The notes beneath the pieces are model-generated. The model searched no databases and was not told where the DNA came from. It worked only from the letters and a program-made list of their open reading frames with translations. From Pseudofabraea citricarpa (Eukaryota > Ascomycota > Leotiomycetes > Helotiales > Dermateaceae), in contig JAPWGK010000001.1 of assembly GCA_029641185.1 (NCBI GenBank), forward strand, positions 508,501 to 572,500: DNA of 64,000 bases. The letters run 5' to 3'. Positions 30,788-45,316 of this stretch are shown here, piece by piece. Positions within the stretch are counted from its first letter, which is position 1; each line of letters begins with the position of its first letter. A program made the translations under genes and the position numbers.

Positions 30788-31445
30788 ATGTCTTCTATCA
30801 CTATCCCCAAAACTCTTCGACGGACCCTCACCTCCACCTTCACACGATCGGGATCCGGATCTCGAGCTATACTCTCTAAACCCTCTCCCTCTCTCCTCGT
30901 CAAACAAACACGACTCAACCTCAACTTCAACCCACGCAGTCCGCATAATCCTCTCACGCGCCATTTCGGGACTTATTCGCTAGAAGAATATCTCTCTCTC
31001 CCGGCTCCGAATGAGCATTTACTCATGCGGTTCGTTTTTATTTTTCTTCTCTCGCCTCATTTCCACTTGATTCTTATGCTAATATCTTTAAATCTACAGA
31101 GCTCTTCTCCGCCAAAACTTGATCCTGAAGAAATCTTCTAGGGTCGTACGCACCACGCTCGATACCATGCCCGGATCTCAAAAGAATAGAACTGCGGTGT
31201 TGGATTCTGCGGCTAGGGGAGAGAGAGAGCGAGTGGGGAGGAGTGGTGTTCGTGGGGTGGTGAGGAATCAGTTGAATAGTGATGATAAGACTCAGGATAA
31301 GGGAGAAGAGGAAGAGAAAAATAAAGAGAAAAGGGAGGATGAGAAGAGTGGTCGTGGTAAGGAATATGAGAGGTTGATGAAAGAGAACAAGGAGGGGAAA
31401 CTCTCTAGGTCGGAGATTTTTAGACTTTTGTTTTGGTGGCTTTGA
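30788..31445 (+). CDS. Small basic protein, possibly mitochondrial
   Basis: Two exons, 30788-31029 and 31100-31445, with a 70-bp intron (gttcgt donor, ctacag acceptor), give 195 residues. The first 60 residues are Arg/Ser/Thr-rich and almost free of acidic residues, like a mitochondrial targeting peptide. The second exon has an ALLRQNLILKKSSRVVRTTLDT segment followed by a highly charged Lys/Glu stretch and ends in an aromatic LLFWWL. I do not recognise the family. The donor is not ideal, so the junction is less certain than others in this window. Confidence 0.6.
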
Positions 31446-32949
31446 ATTTCTTAAGGTATTGGGGTAACGAGAGGCGGTGTTTCTTAATACTAGAATTTGG
31501 GGGGTTTTGATTGTTATCTTTGTTGCTGTAATAATATTTTCGATGCGAATGGTATCACGTACAGGAGCCGATAGAATATATTCAACCGAGTCTTGTACCT
31601 TAGACTAATAAAAGTATACTCCTCTCTAAAATATTACTTACCACCTTTACTATTATCCGGGTATAGATAGTAGGAATCTGTATTAGATATTATAATAACC
31701 AGGTGTTAGGTAGGAATAAAGGCTCGCTTAATTTTATAGCTTACCAAAGCTTCCTCCTAAGTTTATCTTACTAGCTATACTATTATATATAGAGACTTAA
31801 CATGATAGTTCGCTCTTATTATTATAATCTATATTATATAAGTCTTAACCGAATTTTAAATAAGATAATATACTAGATTTCCTTAGCTTATATATATTAT
31901 ATTATACGCGCCTAACTTTTAAAAGATATTAGGGTATCTACTAACTAGAAAGAAAATAGAATCTATAAGATACTTAGGGTTAGGGGTAACCCTAACTTAT
32001 AGTTAGGGTTAGGGTAGGTTCGGGTTCGGGTTCGGGTTTAGGTTAGGGCTAAGAGGGGCTAGAAAGCATTATAAATATATATAATAAAACCCCTAAAGAG
32101 AATCCTACAAAGGCGACTTAGGTAAATTATTATCTAGCTAGGATTTGAACTAGGAGACTTTATATAATTATAAAAACGCAAAGAGGCTTTAATATTACAA
32201 TTGATTCTTTATTATTCGAGGACTTATCTATATATCTTAATAGTATATACTAGTAGCACTCCGTGTAATAAGAAATCAAATCAAGTATAAGGTTTCTAAG
32301 GCTAGTTTTGTACTTGGAAATTATATACCGATATTACCAAGTAAATAAGAGATACAAGCAGTAGTATATTATTAATAGATCGGCTTTTCTCTTGCGGGCT
32401 TTATTATCTCTTAAACAGAAAAGGCTCTTCGCTTACGATAGGAGCAGGTTTTAGGATGTTTCTCCTTTCTTTCATAATCTTAGGCTTTGATCAGCTACTG
32501 TCTAATCTCAAGTTGTATATTTCTTCTAGTTATAATAAACAAACGTATAAAGAGTGAATGCGATTTGAGCGTGTTGAGTTGCAAATACTTATTAAAAGTC
32601 TATAAAGTAATTGTTATACTTTTTACAGTTTAGAGGAAAGGGCGAAAGCCTACAAAGCCGCGGAGACCCAGTGGTGGGCAAGAGGGGTTAATTTTATACT
32701 ATTCCAAGTAAAAACAGAAAACATTTTATTGTTCCAAGGTTTGTAGATTGGATTTTTGTCGCAAAAGTCTTAGACTTAAAAATAAAACCGAATGCTTTCA
32801 GAAATCACCATATACATGTAAGAACTAATTACATTGAAATTGGTTATATCATTTGAGGCTATCAAAACTATCATAATAGTAGATAAGAATAATTTAAGAC
32901 ATTCTGTCTGTGTTTCTATAAAGGTCCCACCTTACCTCGTATACTAAAC
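31446..32949. mobile_element. AT-rich, RIP-like degraded repeat relic
   Basis: From about 31590 to 32480 the sequence shifts to long TA-rich runs with many TpA steps and stop codons in all frames, unlike its neighbours. This is what repeat-induced point mutation leaves of a transposable element in ascomycetes. No open frame, terminal repeat or recognisable transposase or reverse transcriptase remains, so the element class cannot be named. A minus-strand GTTCAAATCC at about 32142-32151 resembles a tRNA or SINE B box. Confidence 0.55.
31974..32048 (+). repeat. Interstitial telomere-like repeats, partly inverted
   Basis: TTAGGG occurs at 31974-31979, TTAGGGG at 31980-31986, CCCTAA (inverted) at 31990-31995, then TTAGGG at 32003-32008 and 32009-32014, three copies of the variant TTCGGG at 32019-32036 and TTAGGTTAGGG to about 32048. 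TTAGGG is the usual Pezizomycotina telomere unit. Confidence 0.85.
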
Positions 32950-35900
32950 TTAATCATAACATGGAGCAGGTATATACTCAATAAGCACGCACTTCCCATC
33001 AAGGGTATTCACAGGATCTAACGTCCATGCAGCACAATTACTCTGGATGACAGCACCTGTTCGCATCAACTGGTCCGAAGAGCATGCCGTAGCCGAAGTC
33101 AGGATTCTGATACATTCGTTGCGCTCGACTTTAAACTCGCAATTGTTCCTGCCTAGCACTCCGACCAGAATCCCATCATAGTATCGATTGGTATTACCCG
33201 CTACGAGGTTTTGATGAAGAGCATTGCCAGATACTACGAGCCCATCCAACTCGTAACAGGCAATGGTGATGGCATCTTCCATTTTCTTAAGTGATGTAGC
33301 AACAGACTCGCTGCCTAGGCATTTCCGAACTTCGGTTTTTGGGTCCGGTTTGGGTGGCGATGGATTCACGGGCGGTTTTGAGACAGCTGGAGTAGGAGCT
33401 GACACAGGCGTGACAACTAAGGTGCTGGTCCGGCCAACTGTTACTAATGCTGTTGCTGTAACTGTCACGATGGTAGTGCTGGGAGATCCGACGCCTGCAC
33501 CGACACTTATACCACCTCCTGAAGATCCCGAGGAGCCGTCGTTGATGGGAGAATAATAGTCTAGGTAATCTTCATCGTCCATATCGTCAGAAATCAGTTC
33601 ACAAACAGCATCTTCGCCTTCTTCCTCTTGATCCTCCTCCTCCTCTTCTTGTTCTTCCTACCAAGCCATTCAGCGTTAGTAAGTCAACCTCTCAAGCTAT
33701 TTTGTGTATATTGTACGGATTGTAGCATACCTGCTTTTGTTCCTTCGTTGGCGTATTTTGATCATCGTTTGTCGGTCCTGGCTTTTTTCCAGGTGGTACG
33801 GGAATTATTGTGATTTCTGGAACAGGCGGAGGAAATGGATCAACATCGGGAGGACAGATGCCAAACGTGACAGTACCAATAATAGGCAGAGTAATCTGAA
33901 TACACAGCGGCTTTAATGCTGGAATGGGAACAACAACTTTTGTGGGAGTTGAACCAGGACCACTCGTGACCGTCATTTTCGATATTCGAATCAACTCTGT
34001 TGACTGCACTGGTGGCGAGATCGTTGTGATTGTCCCGGAGATTGTCGTCACGAATGGAGTTGGCGTCCACGTTGTAGTCTTAGTGATAGGTGGCAGTAAG
34101 AACATACAAGGATACGCACAAGTAACCGTATGTGGACCTTCCCAGAAAGTAGAGATGATATACATGGTATAGTCATTGTCATCTGATGATGCCGTGCCAT
34201 TCATGTTACCCAGACTTGTGCCAGCTGGCAATCTGAAGGGAAACGGGAACGCCGTCCCTGCGGGAATGCTAAGTCCATATGGTAGAGGGACGCCTGGTGG
34301 ATATACATTACCACTCGAACTAGTTATTTGCTGGAAGGGGATGAAGCCCGGTAGCAGATCGAGCGTCCTTGGCAGCGGTGTAAATGCAGAAATCTCGATA
34401 GGATTGGACACGCCACCTCCAATGCCACAGCAAGTTGAGGTTAACAATCTGAGGAGATCGCATCTCTAGAATTTCTATATTAGTAGTCTGTTTCAAGAAG
34501 CAAAAAATGCAAGGTTCAATTTTAGAATTTGAGAAATGCTTACTCCGCATTGAGCGGCACCAGGTCCTGATGGTTGATTCTGCTCGCCTAAATTTGGCTG
34601 AATGTTGATACTGCTAATGACAGGCCCACCAACTGTGAAAGTCGCTGTAGCAGGTACACTAGCTTGAGGAAATGGGATAACGGTTGCTGATTCAGGAGAG
34701 AAGTACAGCATACCGTTACCCCCAATGGGAATGTCACTAGAGGACGAGCAAGCATTGCTCGGGCAAAATCCATGTGCACACGCCCAATCACAAAGGCCGA
34801 AATCTTCCTCGCCACTAGGATATCCGACGACATTGACGGTAGCTGGTGCAGCTGGTGCAGAGGCTCCTGCTTCTAGGCAATCGCAGACTTCTGGCGGACA
34901 AAAGCCATACCGACACGTATAGGCGCACAGATCCTGCCACACTGTATCTGGCCTGCTACCAGATATGCAAATGGGGACTGGAGGAGCAACGACAGGCACT
35001 TCTATGCATATGAAGTCCTTTGGCTTGAGTGTGCAATAGGCTGAAGGACAAAATCCCCGATTGCAAGAATAACTGCATAGGCCGAGCCATCTTACATCTA
35101 AACCGTCTTTGGGACATGCCGTGAAACCGAGTGCCTAGATACACAACTTGTCTTAGTGCCATCTTTGAGATCATAAATAGATATGAATCAAGGAAGAAGT
35201 AGGAATAGCAAGTTCGTTGGCGAGCGAGCCCATTAGGCGACAATCTAACAAAAGGTAGGTATACTCACGGTTGGAGGCTCTACAACTTTTCCAAGAGCTG
35301 TACAGGTGCAAGACGAAGGACAGTAATCGTACTTGCATGTAAATGCGCAAAGTGTTGCAAAATCCCCTTCGCCAGTGCCCTCGATACAACCCTCCGGAAG
35401 TGCAGGAGTGACGGGACCAACAGCGCTGCCTAAGCTGCTTCCTACCCAAGCGTTCCAGTTCTGTATACCATGCGCACACTGAGCAGTAATAGCACGTCCA
35501 TTACTCATCTCTACGATAGGCACTCCACGTCGTGTAATTGTCACGGCAACCGTACCGGTGTTGTCGCCAAATGGCACACTGCCATGATACATACCGATGC
35601 CACCATCCGGGACATTCTCCCACTTTGCTCCAGAGATAACAGTAGAACCGACACGAACGCTTACATCTGCTGATTCTGTGAGAAGTGCAGAGAAAAAGAT
35701 CTTGTCTTGAGCGAGTTCTGAAGGTGGATACACCGCTTGCACTGATGGATATGGTTAGCAAGAAACATGTATATATAATATGGTACTCCACGAGATAGCT
35801 GCAGTTTGGGAATGAATAACTTACACTGGCTTGCTGTATTACCCGTAGTACCACCAGTGGGACATGCAGAAGCTTTATTGAGACGGTACCATGCAACCAC

Positions 35901-37536
35901 ACCTTCCCGAGAAATTGGAGCCACACCACCATTTTTATACGAGTCGATGAGATAAGGAAGAAACTCGCGCCAGCCATCATGCGGCATGCCTTCTGCGTAG
36001 TTGAAAGGGGACTTCCCCCTCTCAAAAGCATGATATTCCTTCTCGCGTAGCGGCCCGATATAATGGGATTCTCCCCAGTCATTCCAGGTAATAATTTCGA
36101 GGTAATCTGGTGGTGAGTCCAGCGCAATCACCTCCTGCCACCGATCAAACCAGAGATCATCACCCCGCCAGAGCCAGTTCTTACGGAAACCAGGCATGTT
36201 AGTGAAGAACCAGGGCGAAACGGGCATCATGTATGGCTTCCCGTCGAGAAAGTCATGATATGAAGCATCAACTGTAGTCAACATATCATGGGGACCATTA
36301 GGCCACTAGAAAATATTATAAGATTAGCTTTATCTTCAAAGGGGAAGCGGCGAATATGTAATAAATATAACGCACAATATGAGCAAGATATGAAATGGAA
36401 AATAAACGCCTAAGTAGACATACGTACTGAGGCCCAATTAAACAGTCCGTCCACCACTCCGGTTTCAACAGCTTTCCTTGCACCCAACGACGACCAAGAC
36501 GGCATGAAGAAACAACCGGTAGCATCTTTAATGGCTGGCCATTCAGGAGCAGCAAGAGGTCCCTCAAAAGTAGATACTAGTGGCTGTGAACCACGCATGA
36601 AATAAACCGGATCAGTCTTGTACTTGTTGATAAGTGCAATCACGTCTGCCTGGTCCCAGAGCCCGTTTCCAGCATAGTCGAAAGAAAAAAAGAGCTTGAA
36701 TCCGGCGCCGAGATTGTTCGCGGCACGGAAAGCCAAGTCGAGGGAATCACCGTTGGTTTTCTCATTACGTGCCATGTTGAGCGCGAATCCATCAATATGG
36801 GCGTCTCGCGCTAGGGATATGTCATTTTCCCAATCGCTTATGGTATAATATTGAGTGTTTGAGAGCTATAATAGTAGTTAGAGATAATGGCCCAGCACTG
36901 GTCTAGTCGGTGAAGAAAACGGATACTCACCATAAAATGAGCAAATACTGCTTGCTGAGCTCCTGCGATGGCAGCACTAACAGCGATGTTGACTTTTAAA
37001 CTAGAGAAAGAGTGGTTTCTACTACCAGTTTCAGATGTTTCATTGCTGATCGACAATTCGAGGGACGAGGTATTCAATGACGTGTATTCGAATGTCTCGT
37101 TGAAAGATTTTGTCGCCTGCGGTTGTACTTGAGACACAGAAGTATTGGTTTGGGCGTAAGGAAGTGTTGAGTTTGATACTACTGGAGAGTTTTCAGTCAT
37201 ATGTGGCTGCAATCTTGTCGAGGAGGCATTGTTTGAGGGAGTGAATGAAGTTATATTCGGCGTCCTGGAGATAGTAGGCATAATAGAGGAAGACAGAAAA
37301 GAAGACGACGGCGAAAAAGAAAACGAGGAAGAAAATGACGATATAGTTGTAGTTGCTACATTGGTCGTATTGGGCGAGCACGCCAATGTTGCATTTGTTG
37401 AATTGATTGCTGTTCCAGAAGATTGGCCGGGCACATGGCAAGAAGAGATGTTTTTAGAAGTATGTTCAATACTCGGATTTCCATTCACAGCATGTGAAAA
37501 TAATAAGAGAGCTAGGGTACCGTGAAGAAACATCAT
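32950..37536 (-). CDS. Secreted GH71 alpha-1,3-glucanase (mutanase) with cysteine modules and long C-terminal extension
   Basis: Seven exons on the minus strand: 36931-37536, 36428-36865, 35825-36305, 35269-35741, 34544-35134, 33731-34465 and 32950-33657, all phase-compatible, give 1,343 residues. MMFLHGTLALLLFSHAVNG is a signal peptide (an in-frame ATG at 37563 is an alternative). A Ser/Thr/Asn-rich linker to residue 190 leads into GH71: AVFAHFM, NTQYYTISDWENDI, HIDGFALN, SFDYAG, PWFFTN and EIITWNDWGESHYIGP. Four copies of a C-x3-C-x4-C-P-x(2,3)-C module follow (about 630-800), then a Pro/Thr-rich region with CAYPCMFLLPP, an acidic linker, and a C-terminal part with eight Cys. GH71 cleaves fungal wall alpha-1,3-glucan. 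Most GH71 enzymes are about 450 residues, so the extension is exceptional. Confidence 0.93.
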
Positions 37537-38651
37537 GGTATGGGGATTTGAGATTAGTTCCATAGGGTTAAAATCTCTAATGGCCTGAAATTCTTGGGTT
37601 AATCGAGGTGAACTTGACAGAAAGCAGAAGATATAAAAAATACCTGTAGTCACAAGTTTTAACGAAATGGAGTTGATTCTAATGCTGATCGATAAAAGCT
37701 AATGGCAGAGAGACTTGGGGAATGCTCGCTTATTACACGCGGTGCCGATAGCCGTCTGTCGAAGGAGAAAGTTCTAAAATCCAATGAATGGGTCACCTTC
37801 GGGACAATTAAAATCTATGCTTAGTCGGCAAGCCAGAAGATATTCCACTGCATTTTTAGGCTTAAAAAGTGAGAGAGAGATTTTTTACAGCATATCCATA
37901 AAGTTCCCACGTAGATAGGTTAGCGAGTTCATGTAACCCTACCTTCGCCCCGGGCATAATCCAAGCATCTTCATCTAAAGGAACGACCACCCGAAGGCTG
38001 GAATAATGCCTGATTCTGATGTTTTTTACGGTTTAGGAATTATGGAAACAGAATTATAAGATCTTGGCGCCCTAACCTTGTTCTGTGCGCAAGGAGACAC
38101 GCCGCAAACAGACAGCAGCCAAAAGTTCAACCAGGGGTAGGTTACATTTTGGTAGCAAGGAGTTCAGAGGACTCCGGCCCATGTAAGAGACTTCTGTTGA
38201 ATAGAGAGAGCTAGCGTCATCCCGGCAAGTACCCGATGAAGTTTTTAAGATGTGGTTCATATAGCAAATTGGGAAGCCAAGGAGTTTCTTTTTTCTCTAC
38301 CCTCCTAATAAGCCCCGAGGGTGGAGATGCATGTTTCCAGAAATATGACTATAGAAATATACCCACAAAGGTTCAAAGATTAATGAATTGATTTTTATGC
38401 AAAGCTACCTAGGTTGACTTTGAAAGTTGAGAGTCTTTGTTGTAAATAGTCATATCAGCTCGAATTTGTAGACGAAAGGAGCAAATTGCCCGTACAAAAT
38501 CAGAACCTCAGCTATAAACGAAATCTCGAAGACTCGCGAATTTACAAACCCTACCTAGGTAGTTAGGCTTGAAAACACATCTAAGTATCAAAACGTATAG
38601 ATTATAAAATCCAAAATCTCATCCTCTTGACCGACACCATGAATCCAGCTT
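37537..38651. other. Intergenic region upstream of the GH71 gene
   Basis: Promoter region of the GH71 gene and 3' flank of the nuclease gene; both are on the minus strand. A perfect TACCTAGGTA lies at 38552-38561 and a near copy at about 38406-38415. No coding region is seen. Confidence 0.5.
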
Positions 38652-40017
38652 TCAGACGATGGGAGGATCATCCTCTCGGACAGAAAGACAATTAGGCCGA
38701 AGAGCTTTCCCCCCTTGCACTGTATGGCCATAACAGTATCTCTTAAGGCCTCGAGCCTCCAACCAGATCGCATAGTCCTCACCAGCATCATCTACCATCT
38801 CAAAATCAAATTTGAAAATTGTATATTCAACGTCATTTAAGACTCTATGCTCGAGGGGTGACCGAGATGTCATATATGTCTATATACAAGCGATATTAGC
38901 TATAACTTTCTTTATCGACTAGGCAGGGTATGTATGTAATATCAACTCCTAACCATTCCATTTGCTGAATGAATGGAGCAATGACTTACTGAGAGGGCTT
39001 TGTGACCAGAACTTTGCCAATTCTGCTCGGTGGTCTGGGATTTCAGATTTAAATTACAACTCCCTCCTTGTGGTGCGCCTAAGAATTATCAGAATTCTGA
39101 GTTGAACAGGCTTGTATCTTTGACTAATAAAGAGATGGAGGAATATATGTTATGGAGAGGTGATATGAGAAATTTATTGCCATACAGTACGTTGCAGCTG
39201 GCTTGGTGCCACCACCTCCTTCAATCCAGCTATATTACAAAAGTAACACGTTAGAGACAAATACTAAAGACTGTGAACATGACTTTGAACTCAAAACTAG
39301 CAACTTGAAGTGAAGATAAAGATTGAAGTAGGGGTGAAATTGACATGTAGTCTTATACGTATCGATAACAAAGTCAAGAAGTGCATACCTTGCAGCTGGC
39401 CATTCGTCACAGGTCATTTTAGCTCCCGTTTTCACATATCGATGATAACCATCTCTATCGGCTCTCTCTGAGATGTAAGCCATTTGGGTATTGTGAGCAT
39501 CTCCAGGTACAGCTTTCCCTTCGAGATCTCTCGTCTTTGGGCGATACATGATGACTTCTCTTGGTGTGGGATTTGGGAAGGATTTCCACAGAGGTTGATC
39601 GGCTTCCGGACAGCGATTATTGTCAGTCCAACCCTCGTAGCAACTTTGGTCACGGCGCTCCTCCTTTCGATAATTTATTTTGCCGTTCCAGTAGCCTTTA
39701 TCGTAATGTAGTGTTTTAGTTGTCACGTCCGGACCAAGATATTGCTTTACAGTATTGCAAAGTGCCGGGATGTGGGCACAGTTATAGACCAGCTTCGGTC
39801 TCATCGCCCCGAAATCTCTCACTGAAAAGCCACAATTGTCAGCTGATTTTAGATATATAGAATTTGCAGTACCTGTGTAGATAGTATCTTCCTCTACATC
39901 GTCTGAATATCTCAAAGCCTTGTAGGTATCGCCCGCAACAACTTGAGGTCCTGGAAACCCCTGACACAAAACTGCCGTTACCACCCAACATACAATAGAA
40001 AGCACCTGTGGTATCAT
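38652..40017 (-). CDS. Secreted NucA/NucB-type DNase, predicted toxin
   Basis: Five exons on the minus strand, 39873-40017, 39389-39821, 39186-39229, 38990-39078 and 38652-38879, give about 312 residues with a hydrophobic signal peptide (MIPQVLSIVCWVVTAVLCQG). The NucA/NucB fold (Pfam PF14040) is recognised in the C-terminal half: KMTCDEWPAAR, equivalent to the bacterial CDEYPFA active-site motif, SWIEGGGG, a Cys pair, and the EQNWQSSG segment that matches the family's late N/Q-G block. Bacterial members are secreted DNases or polymorphic toxin tips. The intron 39822-39872 is 51 nt, so retention would keep frame and insert 17 residues. Its neighbours encode wall-degrading and chitin-binding secreted proteins. 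Nuclease activity is inferred. Confidence 0.85.
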
Positions 40018-41090
40018 TCTAGGACTATAAGATATAAAAAAGACAGCAGCCTATAAAGTAAATGATCATAAGACGAAGGTTAATGAAAGATAGATTGGAT
40101 CGCAGGGTCTACTGTATCTTAGTCTTCTTGAAAGAGCAATAAGAAATTCTATAATATTTGAGTTTTGTCAGCCGCTTGTTGATCTCCGGCTAATTTTGTA
40201 AAAAGTTGGCTCTTAAATCAATGCATGATTCTAGAGATCCAGTTTTTGAGTTTTAGCTATGCGGATTCTCGATAAGCCAGACCATCCTTCCATGTAGTCA
40301 TTGGGTGCGATGGCACTAGTGACTGCCTCGATTGGGTCAATCTACCAGCGTCAGAATTCAGCTTCTTTTTATGGAGTATTTAGTAATTGAAACAAATTCC
40401 TGCCATACATTTGTGAACTGGTTCACTCTTTTGCCGGGATATGAACACGCCATTTCAATACGACCTTGTTGCTAGAATTATAGTAACTATGCGTATTTCT
40501 CACGATGAGAACATGAGGGGGAAGACCTCACTTGGTCTGGAGCCTGAAAACATCTCCTTCCGTGACTCAGTCACGCCCTTTGAACCGGAATGGTGTACCT
40601 GCATATGCACGGTAAATCTTCGCAAACCTTAAACAATCATTTATGAAGAAACTCGGCTGATCATACAACCGATATGGAGACCTCCCTTTCGGTGTCAGTG
40701 GAGTAATGAGATCAAAAAGGAAGGTGGTGTCCATGGCTAAGACTATTAAGCCATGGAAATATTCTTCGCTGTAACGCAACACATTTTTTACTCGGCACAA
40801 ACAAGCATTTGCCATATAGACATCCTAGTTATTCATTTTTGTAAGCAGCTGCAACCGTTGAGCTACATGCGTACATATCTTGGCGAAACTGGCTCGGCAT
40901 CTGCTCGCTTAGTGCACATGTCTGATGCAGTTCGACAAATTCGTCTAATAGTTTATCCACTTCAGTTTGTTGACACCCTCTCATCGAATTCTCCAAGAGT
41001 TGCTCTCAGTTTTGTAGCAGACGCCTAGCCTTTCCATCATCTTTCAGCCTCTTCTCACTCCCCTTATCATTCATAATCTTAGTAGTCGAG
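40018..41090. promoter_or_regulatory. Divergent promoter region of nuclease and LysM/hevein genes
   Basis: A 1.07-kb region between the oppositely oriented nuclease and chitin-binding genes, allowing co-regulation from a shared region. I found no clear regulator motif. Short frames at 40441-40632 and 40753-41028 have no family features and are not called. Confidence 0.45.
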
Positions 41091-42911
41091 ATGAAAAGTC
41101 GCGACACCAGTCCACTTTTTGTGGCAATGGTATTCATGCTCTCCCAACTTACTCAAGCCGATTATTTCTCTCCTACAGGTAATTTTGACTGATTGACTTT
41201 TCGGGGAGAACGTTGTCTAACCTATACTTAGAATCCACACTGAAGCCTAGATACGATGCCTCTGATTGTAGGTTATGGGCTACAACAGATATGTGGACGA
41301 CATGTGTATCATTTCTCAACCTTTACGGGTTGTCGCTTCCAAATTTTGTAAATATGAATCCTTCGGTCGAGTTCGATTGCTACGGCTTTCAGCCAGGAGT
41401 TGAATATTGCTTGAGAATGCGTGAGTTCGCTCAGTGACGGCGTCTTACAATGATGTGTAAGAGATGGAACGTTTAGACTCTATACTAACAACATTAATCT
41501 TTTCGATCGAAAAAGCCTCTAGCCTACCTGTCTCAACTGATGGAATATGTGGTATTCAGGCCCCAAAAAGAGTGACTTGCGTGAATTCAGGGTTTGGTGA
41601 TTGCTGTGGAAAAGATGGGAGGTAAGTCTTTTCTCGAAGCGATACTGATGCATACGCAATAATTGACAAATCTAACTTTTCGTAGGTGCGGTTCGACAGA
41701 GTATGTACTTCCACACATCTTATATGTTACGTTTACGTTAACAGTTAATATAATCTAATTGTAAAATGCTTACTAAGTATACAGTGATTTCTGTGCCATT
41801 GGAAACTGTCAAGCTGGCAACTGCCCCGGGTTAGGATACAGTTTTGATGGAAGTTGTGGAGTTGACTATGGCGATCTAATGTGTGGTGGTTCGCAAGGGA
41901 AGTGTTGCTCCAATAATGGCAGGTATGTGCTTCTATTTTTATAAAATATTTATTTGCTCAACTTCAAAGGATCTGCAAGTTCTAAAATCTACGCTTTTGA
42001 AACTTTGCTAATCAAATCACAATTCACAGGTGTGGAAGTACAGATGCTGAGTGTGGAAGAGGAAATTGCCAATCTGGAACGTGTGAGGACTCAACAACAA
42101 TAGAAAGCACAACTAGCACGTGAGTTTATTTTTTCATATCGTTATACAAGTGTCAATTTCTCTGATGCCTCATTGTTGGAATACGCTAATTTCCACCATT
42201 TCCACCTATAGCAAACCAAGTCCCCTTCCATCACCCTACAGTCCCAGTCCAGACGGAACATGTGGTTACGTAAACAAATACACATGTAATGGGACAGCAT
42301 TATATTTTGGAAACTGTTGTTCTGCAGCAGGATATTGTGGTATAACACAATATCATTGCGATAATCTCCAAGGATGGTAAGTCTTGTGGCGAATTACACA
42401 TATAAAAGACGAAGCGATCAAAAGAGACTGATTTTATTTATATAGCCAATCGGATTTCGGACTCTGTGACAAAACTGTTGTTGTTACTGTGACAGTGGAT
42501 CCGCCAAATTTTACTACAAGCACCATCTCTAGATCAAGCTCAAGCTCAAGTTCTACAGAGCCATCGAGTTCAAAAGCCATTTCCACGTCTAGCTCGCTAG
42601 TGACAAGTTCGACGACCAACACTAAACCAACATCCTCCGCGGCACCGATATCAACTCCGGTTTGTATTTCTGGTACGGGTCCTGGCAACTACCAGGGTCT
42701 ATGCGACTTCTGCTGCGCTCGCGCGTACTGTCCAGAACCCGTCTGTATATGTTTGTATTATGGCGACCCTATCCCTATTCCGGCACCCACTTCTCCAGTG
42801 GGATACCCTATTTCTGGTGGAGATAGCTCGTATTTGGGTCTATGTAGTTTTGCTTGTAATCATGGATATTGCCCGCCCACAGCTTGTACTACCGTTGCCC
42901 CTTCGCTTTAG
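41091..42911 (+). CDS. Secreted LysM / triple hevein-type chitin-binding protein with cysteine modules
   Basis: Eight exons give 418 residues: 41091-41178, 41232-41420, 41516-41621, 41686-41700, 41785-41922, 42030-42119, 42212-42376 and 42446-42911. A signal peptide (FVAMVFMLSQLTQA) precedes a LysM domain (TTCVSFLNLYGLSLPNFVNMNP). Three chitin-binding type 1 domains follow, each with the hevein core: GDCCGKDGRCGST, GKCCSNNGRCGST and GNCCSAAGYCG. A Ser/Thr linker then leads to two copies of the cysteine module, LCDFCCARAYCPEPVCIC and LCSFACNHGYCPPTAC, also found in the adjacent GH71 protein. No catalytic domain is present. Killer-toxin-like GH18 proteins combine LysM and hevein domains with a chitinase; here only the binding part exists. 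Chitin tethering or immune masking are the likely roles. Confidence 0.9.
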
Positions 42912-43433: not shown

Positions 43434-45316
43434 ATGGGTCTCCAACTTCCAAATGATTTGGTGCTCGAGATTATTCATTGGGTATGCATATCAGTCTTTA
43501 TACTATTTCCCTTGCCTCTCCATTCCTCCATAAAGCATATAGGGACTGAACCCATGTGTTTTCAGCTCGAAGTACAGTCGGATCTGTACAATTGTTGTCT
43601 AGTGTCTAAAGGGATTAACGCCATGGCAACACCACTTCTATACATGGACTTTCACGATCTCAATTCTGTTAGAAAGCCTATAGAGGATCAGATACGGACG
43701 TTACAGCACCTTTCAGAGCAACCAGCCCGACGTCTGGAGCATGTAATAACGTTTACAATCGACAGAACAAAGTACGAAAGTGCGATGCGATTGTCAAAGA
43801 AAGGGCGTGATGAGATGTTTGCGGCGTTGGAAAAATGTATAGCAAATATGCCCTGTCTAAGAACTTTCCAGTAAGCAGAACGTTTTCCTTTGTTCATCCG
43901 ACACCGAATATTCAAGGCGAAAGCCACACAGATATATATAGTCTTCCCCCTAAAAGGCCATATAACTATACTTACTAACTCCTCTCCTAGCTGGGCATCC
44001 TGCCTTCCTATTCGTGCCTCAACACTTGCAGCGTTACAGCAAGTCAAGACTATAACAGGTCTACATATACCATTACCTGGCAAGAATATTGGACATTCAA
44101 TTTTAGATAACAAGCTTCTAGAGTCACAGATCTATCAGTTTAGAAATCTCGAGTCCTTTAAAGTCTACGATTTTTGGACTCCAAACTCAAAAACTATCAA
44201 AGATTTAGCGAAAGTTCTTCTTAATTCACCCAAACTTACAACCCTAGCGATATCTCTCTCGGTTACGCGGTGTGAGGTATGGGAGCTTGGGTACACAAGT
44301 GATGTCGATGATGACGAAGAGGAAGACGACGGCGACGAGCATGACACCGATCTTTTTGAATTCTTCTCGGCGCTATGTCGAGAATATGCCTCGCTGACTC
44401 AAAATATCAACGGAAATACCACCGGCACGTCTTACACGAAGACCACACCTTTATTGCCATTGACTAATCTGGAGGTTGGAAGCTGTTGCATTCTTGCCAA
44501 AGATGTGCAACTCCTCACGGATCTATCAGTTCTAAAAACAATTAGCATCGACAACAAAAGGCAGTCGCTCTTTGGACAATGCAACCCGTATGACGGGCTT
44601 GAAGCCCCGGCACTATCAGCTATAGCTGGTTTGACACCCAGTCTCCGCTCTGTCGAGTTTGATATCTTTGACTATAGAGCCGATGGGCTCGATATCAACT
44701 TCTCACAGGACTTTCCTTCTCTCACAGACTTGTTCATTAAAGAGCCCTGCCATAATCTCATCCAAGATATCACTAAGTGCGGCGGTGGCGATCTAAATGC
44801 TACGCGCTGGAAGCGGTTGGCATTGGGGAGATTTAAAAGCTTTCCCCGGAAATCAAGCGACGATATCGAAATGATACTTAGTAGCTGGATATTGAAATGC
44901 AAAGAGCTCACGCACTTATATATGTGTGTCGAGTTCGAAAATCTGGTGCGTCTCTCTATGTGTCCCGCTTTTATTTCACCAAATAAAGATAACCGCTCTA
45001 ATTATTAATTGTTCCTATTAAGCCCACGCTCCTCACAACTATCTCACAGCTATCGCATCTAGAGGAGCTACATATCACAATCTGGAGCACTAGATCAAAC
45101 CCGCTTTTTGAATCTAAAAAATCATGTGGCGAGCAATTATTCGCAAACAGTACAAGTCTACATATAGCTAGTGTATTTATAGCCCCATCTGTAGGGTTTT
45201 GGAGACGAAATCACGTTGGTGGAGAGCTAAGTGTTGTCTCGGAAAGTGAGATACACATGCTTAACAAAGACGGGTTCCCAAGAGAGTTTATAGATCTCAG
45301 ATACATGTCAGGTTAG
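43434..45316 (+). CDS. F-box-like / leucine-rich repeat-type protein
   Basis: Four exons, 43434-43481, 43566-43870, 43991-44945 and 45023-45316, give 533 residues. The N-terminus reads MGLQLPNDLVLEIIHW and, across the first intron, LEVQSDLYNCCLVSKG and ATPLLYMDFHDL, a clear F-box fold (LPxDLxLEII...LxxCxLVSKxxxxxAxPLLY). The rest has widely spaced leucine-rich segments typical of fungal F-box proteins whose C-terminus selects substrate for SCF ubiquitination. The first intron is 84 nt without stop, so unspliced RNA stays in frame. An acidic stretch (DDDEEEDDGDEHD) occurs mid-protein. Target unknown. Last intron has a weak acceptor (cctattaag). Confidence 0.8.

What the first reader, a model, noticed from the sequence alone, without database searches (positions are those of the whole stretch)
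32950..42911. Possible wall-breaching nuclease cassette: GH71 glucanase, NucA/NucB nuclease and LysM/hevein protein
Seen: three adjacent genes for secreted proteins, two of which share a rare cysteine module, around a signal-peptide-bearing NucA/NucB-type nuclease. Known: killer systems such as zymocin join a chitin-binding/chitinase subunit to a toxic nuclease, and NucA/NucB folds are DNases and bacterial toxin tips. Inference: here an alpha-1,3-glucanase plus chitin binding could open or anchor to a rival fungal wall so the nuclease can act. The substitution of GH71 for GH18 and a DNase for a tRNase would be a new variant. Flanking by an AT-rich degraded repeat fits an accessory region.
Basis: partly seen in the sequence, partly recalled or inferred. 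Interest (0 to 1): 0.9.

Follow-up and report, generated by a model that had tools for sequence, protein, structure and literature searches.

The report
Fungal glucanase–nuclease killer gene cassette
Three neighbouring genes in this fungal genome, for a glucanase-family, a nuclease-like and a chitin-binding-domain protein, recur in the same order at a second place in the same genome, and the predicted secreted products likely act together against rival fungi, which is untested.

Summary
Window 32950-42911 encodes three predicted secreted proteins: a 1343-aa GH71 protein, a 312-aa NucA/NucB-like protein (PF14040 match below its cut-off) and a 418-aa protein with a LysM-like domain, three hevein domains and two copies of a cysteine module that also occurs four times in the GH71 protein. 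New: (1) the same trio, in the same order and orientation, lies on contig C6 of the same genome. (2) Each of the four NucA/NucB-like loci found in this genome has a wall-hydrolase gene near it: GH71 at C1 and C6, GH55 beta-1,3-glucanase at C41, and GH71 fragments 19-20 kb away at C33. (3) The long C-terminal tail of the GH71 protein was found (E up to 0.1) at just those four loci; 9 of at least 11 GH71 loci lack it. I read this as a killer-type pairing of a tailed wall hydrolase with a nuclease, analogous to zymocin and to yeast plasmid ORFs reported to join chitin-binding, GH18 and NucA/NucB parts. Delivery, nuclease activity and killing are inferred. Conservation in other fungi is untested, because the protein search timed out each time it ran. 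A rival reading is co-regulated digestion of prey and its released DNA.

The parts
32950..37536 (-). Gene A: predicted secreted GH71 protein, 1343 aa; exons 37536-36931, 36865-36428, 36305-35825, 35741-35269, 35134-34544, 34465-33731, 33657-32950
   Evidence: Spliced reading; Pfam GH71 E 3.8e-137; PDB relatives
35512..36948 (-). GH71 catalytic region of A (residues 197-585)
   Evidence: Pfam PF03659 position, converted to window coordinates by hand
36069..36080 (-). DxxE catalytic dyad of A in NDWGES (N at residue 423)
   Evidence: for the motif; dyad defined in PMC12394665 (passages); window position by hand
34748..35352 (-). Four cysteine modules of A
32950..34465 (-). C-terminal tail of A (residues 864-1343): Thr/Pro-rich part, acidic linker, Cys-containing end
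   Evidence: Genome search with the tail, reciprocal search, pairwise alignments
38652..40017 (-). Gene B: predicted secreted NucA/NucB-like protein, 312 aa; exons 40017-39873, 39821-39389, 39229-39186, 39078-38990, 38879-38652
   Evidence: PF14040 20.6-21.7 bits, below cut-off 23.8
39403..39408 (-). DE pair of the putative active site (TCDEWP)
   Evidence: Alignment A1; BlNucB D93/E94 in PMC5758888 (passages)
40018..41090 (.). Shared 1.07-kb region between the divergent genes B and C
   Evidence: Gene models; promoter role inferred
41091..42911 (+). Gene C: predicted secreted LysM-like/hevein/cysteine-module protein, 418 aa; exons 41091-41178, 41232-41420, 41516-41621, 41686-41700, 41785-41922, 42030-42119, 42212-42376, 42446-42911
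   Evidence: PF00187 31.9 bits
41234..41419 (+). LysM-like domain of C
   Evidence: beta-alpha-alpha-beta model, pLDDT 60.7; top Foldseek hit is a LysM but E 2.2; no Pfam hit
41516..42376 (+). Three hevein-type (PF00187) stretches of C; outer borders approximate
42699..42887 (+). Two cysteine modules of C, shared with A
43434..45008 (+). F-box gene next to C (possible associated gene, role unknown; 3' end not modelled)
   Evidence: PF12937 28.5 bits, cut-off 24.3
31001..32949 (.). AT-rich RIP-like degraded flank with a short telomere-like array at 32002-32048

Best explanation
The three genes are likely a killer-type competition cassette, in which a GH71-family protein with an unusual C-terminal tail and a chitin-binding-domain protein, both predicted to be secreted, would open or hold a rival's wall so that a NucA/NucB-like nuclease could reach its target. 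Shown: the gene order, the domains, the second copy at C6, the GH55 version at C41, and the restriction of the tail to the nuclease-like loci within this genome. Inferred: that the tail binds or carries the nuclease, that gene C anchors the complex to chitin or shields the producer, that the enzymes are active, and that the nuclease enters the rival cell. Committed mechanism: wall hydrolysis by an interchangeable glucanase (alpha-1,3 in GH71, beta-1,3 in GH55), chitin docking by C, and tail-dependent presentation of the nuclease.
For: (i) Second cassette at C6 in the same order and orientation: LysM/hevein/Cys gene 979231-977734 (-), 215/370 identical; NucA/NucB-like about 982383-983713 (+), 104/252; GH71 about 984.5-989.7 kb (+), 648/1294. 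(ii) Fourth NucA/NucB-like gene at C41:1498.5-1497.3k (-), followed on the same strand by a GH55 beta-1,3-glucanase (a 128-aa stretch matches PDB 5m5z E 3e-28 and 3eqn). (iii) Tail of A found at E up to 0.1 only at C1, C6, C41:1493.2k and C33:39.3-39.9k, the four contigs places with NucA/NucB-like genes; the reciprocal search from the C41 tail returns C1 (E 1.3e-5). (iv) 9 of at least 11 GH71 loci gave no tail match, and the 10-kb stretches around those nine hold no convincing NucA/NucB-like match; the best stray one (E 0.05, C42:482.5k) has no LVYNC or CDE motif when read. (v) Chance: with 60 randomly placed wall-hydrolase loci the analytic chance that at least 3 of 4 nuclease loci have one within 5 kb is 1e-5 (it ignores shared descent of copies). 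(vi) A has the DxxE dyad; B has H, DE and N that can match BlNucB H53/D93/E94/N117. (vii) Precedents: killer toxin-like GH18s are proposed to permeabilise rival walls (PMC2614207, PMC8715425, passages); LysM genes lie beside them (PMC7176902, PMC4392113, passages); a yeast plasmid ORF is reported with an autolysin fragment, ChtBD1, GH18 and a NucA/NucB fragment (PMC8472843, passages).
Against: PF14040 hits are below cut-off, a PF14040 scan of the genome found nothing, and no solved structure was found by sequence. The AlphaFold model of B exon 2 is unusable (pLDDT 33). The C41 copy lacks a His at the aligned column, and C6 has Asp for Asn. The C41 stretch read (1489-1502 kb) gave no match to gene C. 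C33 is decayed. My mechanical reading of the C6 GH71 meets one in-frame stop in the tail, or an unrecognised intron. C1, C6 and C33 are related copies, so the independent events may be only two. A. nidulans GH71 enzymes act only minimally on insoluble alpha-1,3-glucan and not on intact cells when applied from outside (PMC12394665, passages). The Debaryomyces elements with NucA/NucB parts were not responsible for killing (PMC8472843). No entry route or immunity gene is shown.
Confidence: 0.5

Rival explanations
1. A digestive set: the glucanase, the chitin-binding protein and the DNase are co-regulated secreted proteins for feeding on dead or attacked fungal hyphae; the nuclease degrades released DNA outside cells and nothing is delivered.
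For: All three are predicted secreted; bacterial NucB is a biofilm-degrading endonuclease found in culture supernatants (PMC5758888, passages); GH71 enzymes of the mycoparasite Trichoderma harzianum are proposed to serve predation (PMC12394665, passages).
Against: The tail was found only at nuclease-like loci, which is more than a digestive set needs; nine other GH71 loci carry neither a tail match nor a convincing nearby nuclease match.
Confidence: 0.28
2. A host-interaction set: the chitin-binding protein hides or protects the fungus's own wall, GH71 remodels its own alpha-1,3-glucan, and the DNase counters extracellular DNA released by a host.
For: A LysM protein beside a killer toxin-like chitinase gene is proposed to protect hyphae from the fungus's own chitinases (PMC7176902, passages); a secreted fungal DNase is a virulence factor in Cochliobolus heterostrophus (PMC6401486, abstract start and passages).
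Against: GH55 replaces GH71 at C41 while the tail stays; nothing here shows what the fungus lives on; its name is not given.
Confidence: 0.14
3. Neighbourhood by descent only: an old chance linkage that was duplicated, without joint function.
For: C1, C6 and C33 are clearly related copies; F-box-type genes also lie at these places.
Against: The C41 version has a different hydrolase (GH55) and a diverged nuclease-like gene but keeps both the pairing and the tail.
Confidence: 0.08

Closest known systems
Zymocin and related killer toxins of yeast linear plasmids
   Same: A wall-polymer hydrolase with chitin binding is paired with a nuclease; both encoded together and secreted (here predicted).
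   Different: Here the genes are chromosomal and separate, the hydrolase is GH71 (or GH55) and not GH18, and the nuclease resembles NucA/NucB and not an anticodon tRNase; killing is untested.
Debaryomyces hansenii plasmid ORFs with autolysin fragment, ChtBD1, GH18 and NucA/NucB fragment (PMC8472843, passages)
   Same: Chitin binding, wall hydrolase and a NucA/NucB part in one system.
   Different: There one fused ORF with GH18 on a plasmid; here three genes with GH71 and a distinct tail. Those plasmids were not responsible for killing.
Killer toxin-like (subgroup C) GH18 chitinase plus LysM gene pairs of filamentous ascomycetes
   Same: Large multi-domain wall hydrolase near a LysM/hevein gene. 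This genome has a GH18 gene divergent from a hevein-bearing gene at C24 and a GH71 gene divergent from a LysM-like gene at C42; the labels killer toxin-like and LysM for these two were given by eye.
   Different: Those two pairs show no convincing NucA/NucB-like match in the stretch read; here a candidate protein payload lies in between.
GH71 alpha-1,3-glucanases (AnGH71C, Agn1)
   Same: Catalytic domain and DxxE dyad.
   Different: Four cysteine modules and a 480-residue tail follow the catalytic part.
Bacterial NucB / Tox-NucA domains
   Same: DE pair and Asn in a comparable motif; secreted DNases or toxin tips.
   Different: Similarity below Pfam's cut-off; extra C-terminal region; eukaryotic, intron-containing gene.

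Membership tests
GH71 (PF03659) | Pfam match above cut-off over the whole domain | tested here: met
   457.5 bits, cut-off 34, profile 1-374 of 375
GH71 (PF03659) | DxxE catalytic dyad | tested here: met
   NDWGES at residue 423; dyad from PMC12394665
GH71 (PF03659) | alpha-1,3-glucan hydrolysis | not testable with these tools
   needs enzyme assay
NucA/NucB nuclease (PF14040) | Pfam match above curated cut-off | tested here: not met
   20.6-21.7 bits for window B, cut-off 23.8; 19.9 bits for the C6 copy; hence called NucA/NucB-like
NucA/NucB nuclease (PF14040) | Catalytic Asp-Glu pair and Asn | tested here: met
   TCDEWP and EQNWQ in window B, matched by motif order to the residues in PMC5758888. 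Asn is Asp in the C6 copy
NucA/NucB nuclease (PF14040) | Upstream catalytic His (BlNucB H53) | tested here: inconclusive
   His in window, C6 and C33 copies, absent in C41 at that column; no structural alignment
NucA/NucB nuclease (PF14040) | Fold | tested here: inconclusive
   model pLDDT 33, not usable; no PDB sequence hit
Hevein / CBM18 (PF00187) | Pfam match above cut-off | tested here: met
   31.9 bits, cut-off 27.8, three stretches
LysM (CBM50) | Pfam LysM match | tested here: not met
   no LysM family at E up to 1
LysM (CBM50) | beta-alpha-alpha-beta fold | tested here: inconclusive
   topology seen at pLDDT 60.7; Foldseek top hit LysM 5bum but E 2.2
Zymocin-type killer toxin | GH18 alpha-subunit | tested here: not met
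   hydrolase is GH71, no other family at E up to 1 in A
Zymocin-type killer toxin | Linear cytoplasmic plasmid location | tested here: not met
   window lies inside a 4,072,177-base contig
Zymocin-type killer toxin | tRNase gamma-subunit and immunity gene | not tested
   no gamma or immunity homolog search was run
Zymocin-type killer toxin | Killing of sensitive strains | not testable with these tools
   needs experiment
GH55 (C41 partner) | Sequence match to solved GH55-type beta-1,3-glucanases (5m5z, 3eqn, 8jhh; the GH55 label is recalled) | tested here: met
   128-aa stretch: 5m5z E 3e-28, 3eqn E 8.9e-28, 8jhh E 6.4e-25

The most novel reading that the evidence does not exclude
Filamentous ascomycetes carry a modular family of binary killer systems: an interchangeable wall hydrolase (GH71, GH55, perhaps GH18) ends in a dedicated C-terminal tail that docks and delivers a NucA/NucB-like nuclease encoded next door, with a LysM/hevein protein as anchor or self-shield and possibly a neighbouring F-box gene for control or immunity. 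This would supply the missing protein payload of killer toxin-like wall hydrolases.
Probability: 0.3. Interest if true: 0.85.

Novelty: new variant of a known kind. Interest (0 to 1): 0.62.

Why it matters
Killer toxin-like hydrolases of filamentous fungi are thought to open rival walls for 'antifungal molecules' (PMC2614207, PMC8715425, passages), and the passages I read name no encoded protein cargo. Here a candidate cargo is encoded beside the hydrolase, and in this genome a tail on the hydrolase was found only where that candidate is present. That makes the cargo question directly testable by binding, deletion and nuclease assays, and gives two sequence markers (tail and NucA/NucB-like gene) for finding such cassettes in other fungi.

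Tried and rejected
So taxonomic spread and co-location in other species are untested. NucA/NucB fold by AlphaFold on exon 2 failed (pLDDT 33). PDB profile search gave nothing, PHROGs nothing, NCBIfam nothing for B and the tail. The idea that the cysteine module is a rare link between A and C was dropped. A direct PF14040 scan of the genome found 0 matches, so paralogs were found by protein queries, the C41 copy first as a weak hit (E 0.245) confirmed by reading the locus. A stray match upstream of the GH71 gene at C42:480k (E 0.05) was read and rejected: no LVYNC or CDE motif. The F-box neighbour as a fixed part stays a lead: the four neighbours fall into two unrelated-looking families, and the C41 one has no Pfam support. 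Passages of PMC3689799 and PMC11433127 added nothing decisive.
Full report
WHAT IS THERE. The interval 32950-42911 holds three spliced genes. I built the models by hand from the frames: A (minus, 7 exons, 1343 aa), B (minus, 5 exons, 312 aa) and C (plus, 8 exons, 418 aa). B and C diverge from a 1.07-kb region. No transcript data were available, so exon borders are predictions. Each N-terminus has a hydrophobic stretch typical of a signal peptide (hydropathy only).

GENE A. GH71 is certain by sequence (457.5 bits; solved relatives 9fnf, 8yfh, 9m6l), with the DxxE dyad (PMC12394665, passages). After the catalytic part come four cysteine modules and then a 480-residue tail (residues 864-1343): a Thr/Pro-rich part, an acidic linker and a Cys-containing end. 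Pfam and NCBIfam showed no family there.

GENE B. PF14040 is matched below its cut-off (20.6-21.7 bits against 23.8). The window protein and the two paralogs placed in alignment A1 match it at E up to 10 (3 of 3 members, best E 0.00029). Catalytic residues of BlNucB are H53, D93, E94 and N117 (PMC5758888, passages). B has LHYD, TCDEWP and EQNWQ in matching order; C6 has Asp for the Asn, and C41 has no His at that column. The AlphaFold model of exon 2 was useless (pLDDT 33). I therefore call it NucA/NucB-like; activity is not shown.

GENE C. Three hevein stretches (31.9 bits against 27.8), two cysteine modules as in A, and an N-terminal domain that looks like a LysM: Pfam misses it, AlphaFold gives beta-alpha-alpha-beta at pLDDT 60.7, and Foldseek's best hit is a LysM but at E 2.2. 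The LysM label is therefore tentative.

RECURRENCE IN THE SAME GENOME. The genome has 43,985,132 bases in 43 contigs; the window is C1:508501-572500. NucA/NucB-like loci found: C1, C6, C33 and C41. C6 repeats the whole trio in the same order and orientation: C-like gene (-), then an F-box-like gene (+), NucA/NucB-like gene (+), GH71 (+). Identities are 215/370, 104/252 and 648/1294. The C6 GH71 reading meets one in-frame stop in the tail, or an intron I did not recognise. At C41 the NucA/NucB-like gene (weak first hit, E 0.245, confirmed by reading) is followed on its strand by a GH55 beta-1,3-glucanase (128-aa stretch against 5m5z, E 3e-28); gene C has no match in the C41 stretch read. C33 is decayed: part of a LysM/hevein gene with a stop, a NucA/NucB-like gene that my aligner could read only with a frame slip, and, 19-20 kb from that gene, GH71, cysteine-module and tail fragments within about 1 kb (best E 8.8e-21, C33:39.3-40.4k).

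THE TAIL TRACKS THE NUCLEASE. A genome search with the tail of A at E up to 0.1 found C1, C6, C33:39.3-39.9k and C41:1493.2k only. The reverse search with the C41 tail returned C41 and C1 (E 1.3e-5), not C6 or C33. Direct alignment: C6 48% over 382 and 62% over 82 residues; C41 37% over 94. At least eleven GH71 loci were found (the tool calls its counts lower bounds). Two, C1 and C6, have the tail. The 10-kb stretches around the other nine hold no convincing NucA/NucB-like match; the best stray one (E 0.05, C42:482.5k) has no LVYNC or CDE motif. So tail and nuclease-like gene share the same four places out of four, three within 5 kb and one at 19-20 kb. A simple placement model gives an analytic 1e-5 for at least three of four nuclease loci lying within 5 kb of one of 60 wall-hydrolase loci. 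This treats loci as independent, and C1, C6 and C33 are related, so the true count of independent events may be two.

CONTROLS IN THE SAME GENOME. C42:520-528k has a GH71 gene divergent from a LysM-like gene, both with cysteine modules, and C24:307-314k has a GH18 gene, which I recall as killer toxin-like by its look, divergent from a hevein-bearing gene. Neither shows a convincing NucA/NucB-like match in the stretch read. So a hydrolase/chitin-binding pair exists with and without the nuclease-like gene, and the tail goes with the nuclease-like gene.

HOW IT LIKELY WORKS. I commit to a killer-type reading: the tailed hydrolase opens the rival wall, C anchors to chitin or shields the producer, and the tail presents the nuclease. 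Shown: order, domains, recurrence and the tail restriction. Inferred: secretion, activity, binding, delivery, killing.

PRIOR WORK. Killer toxin-like GH18s are thought to permeabilise rival walls for antifungal molecules (PMC2614207, PMC8715425, passages). Deletion of such chitinases in two species lowers growth inhibition by culture filtrates (as told in PMC5999205, passages). LysM genes sit next to them (PMC4392113, PMC7176902, passages). A chitin-binding/GH18 ORF with a NucA/NucB fragment is described on a Debaryomyces plasmid; those plasmids were not responsible for killing (PMC8472843, passages). Bacterial polymorphic toxins include a Tox-NucA family (PMC3482391, passages). In searches I saw no listed paper that joins GH71 or GH55 with NucA/NucB; only the listed part of each result and the passages named were seen, and the library holds open-licence papers only.

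WHAT SPEAKS AGAINST. The Pfam score is below cut-off; there are residue changes at the putative active site in paralogs; two of four loci show decay or a stop; gene C has no match at C41; A. nidulans GH71 enzymes do little to insoluble glucan and not to intact cells. No entry route or immunity gene is shown. Recurrence outside this genome is untested because the protein search failed.

VERDICT.

Noticed in passing
window 43434-45008; C6:979985-981475 (L016/L017); C33:57854-58984 (L019); C41:1499.7-1501.4k (L035): An F-box-type gene lies beside each of the four NucA/NucB-like loci: Pfam-supported in the window, below cut-off at C6 and C33, no Pfam support at C41 but weakly similar to the window one (E 1e-5, one-to-one comparison). 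A genome scan listed 62 F-box-like matches at E up to 0.01, so this is a lead only.
   Followed up: partly
window 32002-32048: A short degenerate telomere-like array (GTTAGG, about 8 copies) inside the AT-rich flank, about 540 kb into a 4.07-Mb contig.
   Followed up: no
L036/L028, C42:520.3-528k: A GH71 gene divergent from a LysM-like gene, both with the cysteine module; the GH71 C-terminal frames weakly resemble that of the C24 GH18 (E 6e-5 and 4e-4 in a one-to-one comparison), as if GH71 replaced GH18 in that architecture.
   Followed up: partly
L037, C41:1196480-1196787: Cysteine modules like those of A and C lie next to a GH18 match at C41:1197.7-1198.3k.
   Followed up: no
genome contig C17:135326-135685: A match to the cysteine-module end of gene C, far from the GH71 gene of that contig.
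   Followed up: no
L038, C41:1491885-1492625: The frame downstream of the GH55 gene contains a long aspartate-rich run before its Cys-containing end, comparable in place to the acidic linker of gene A.
   Followed up: no
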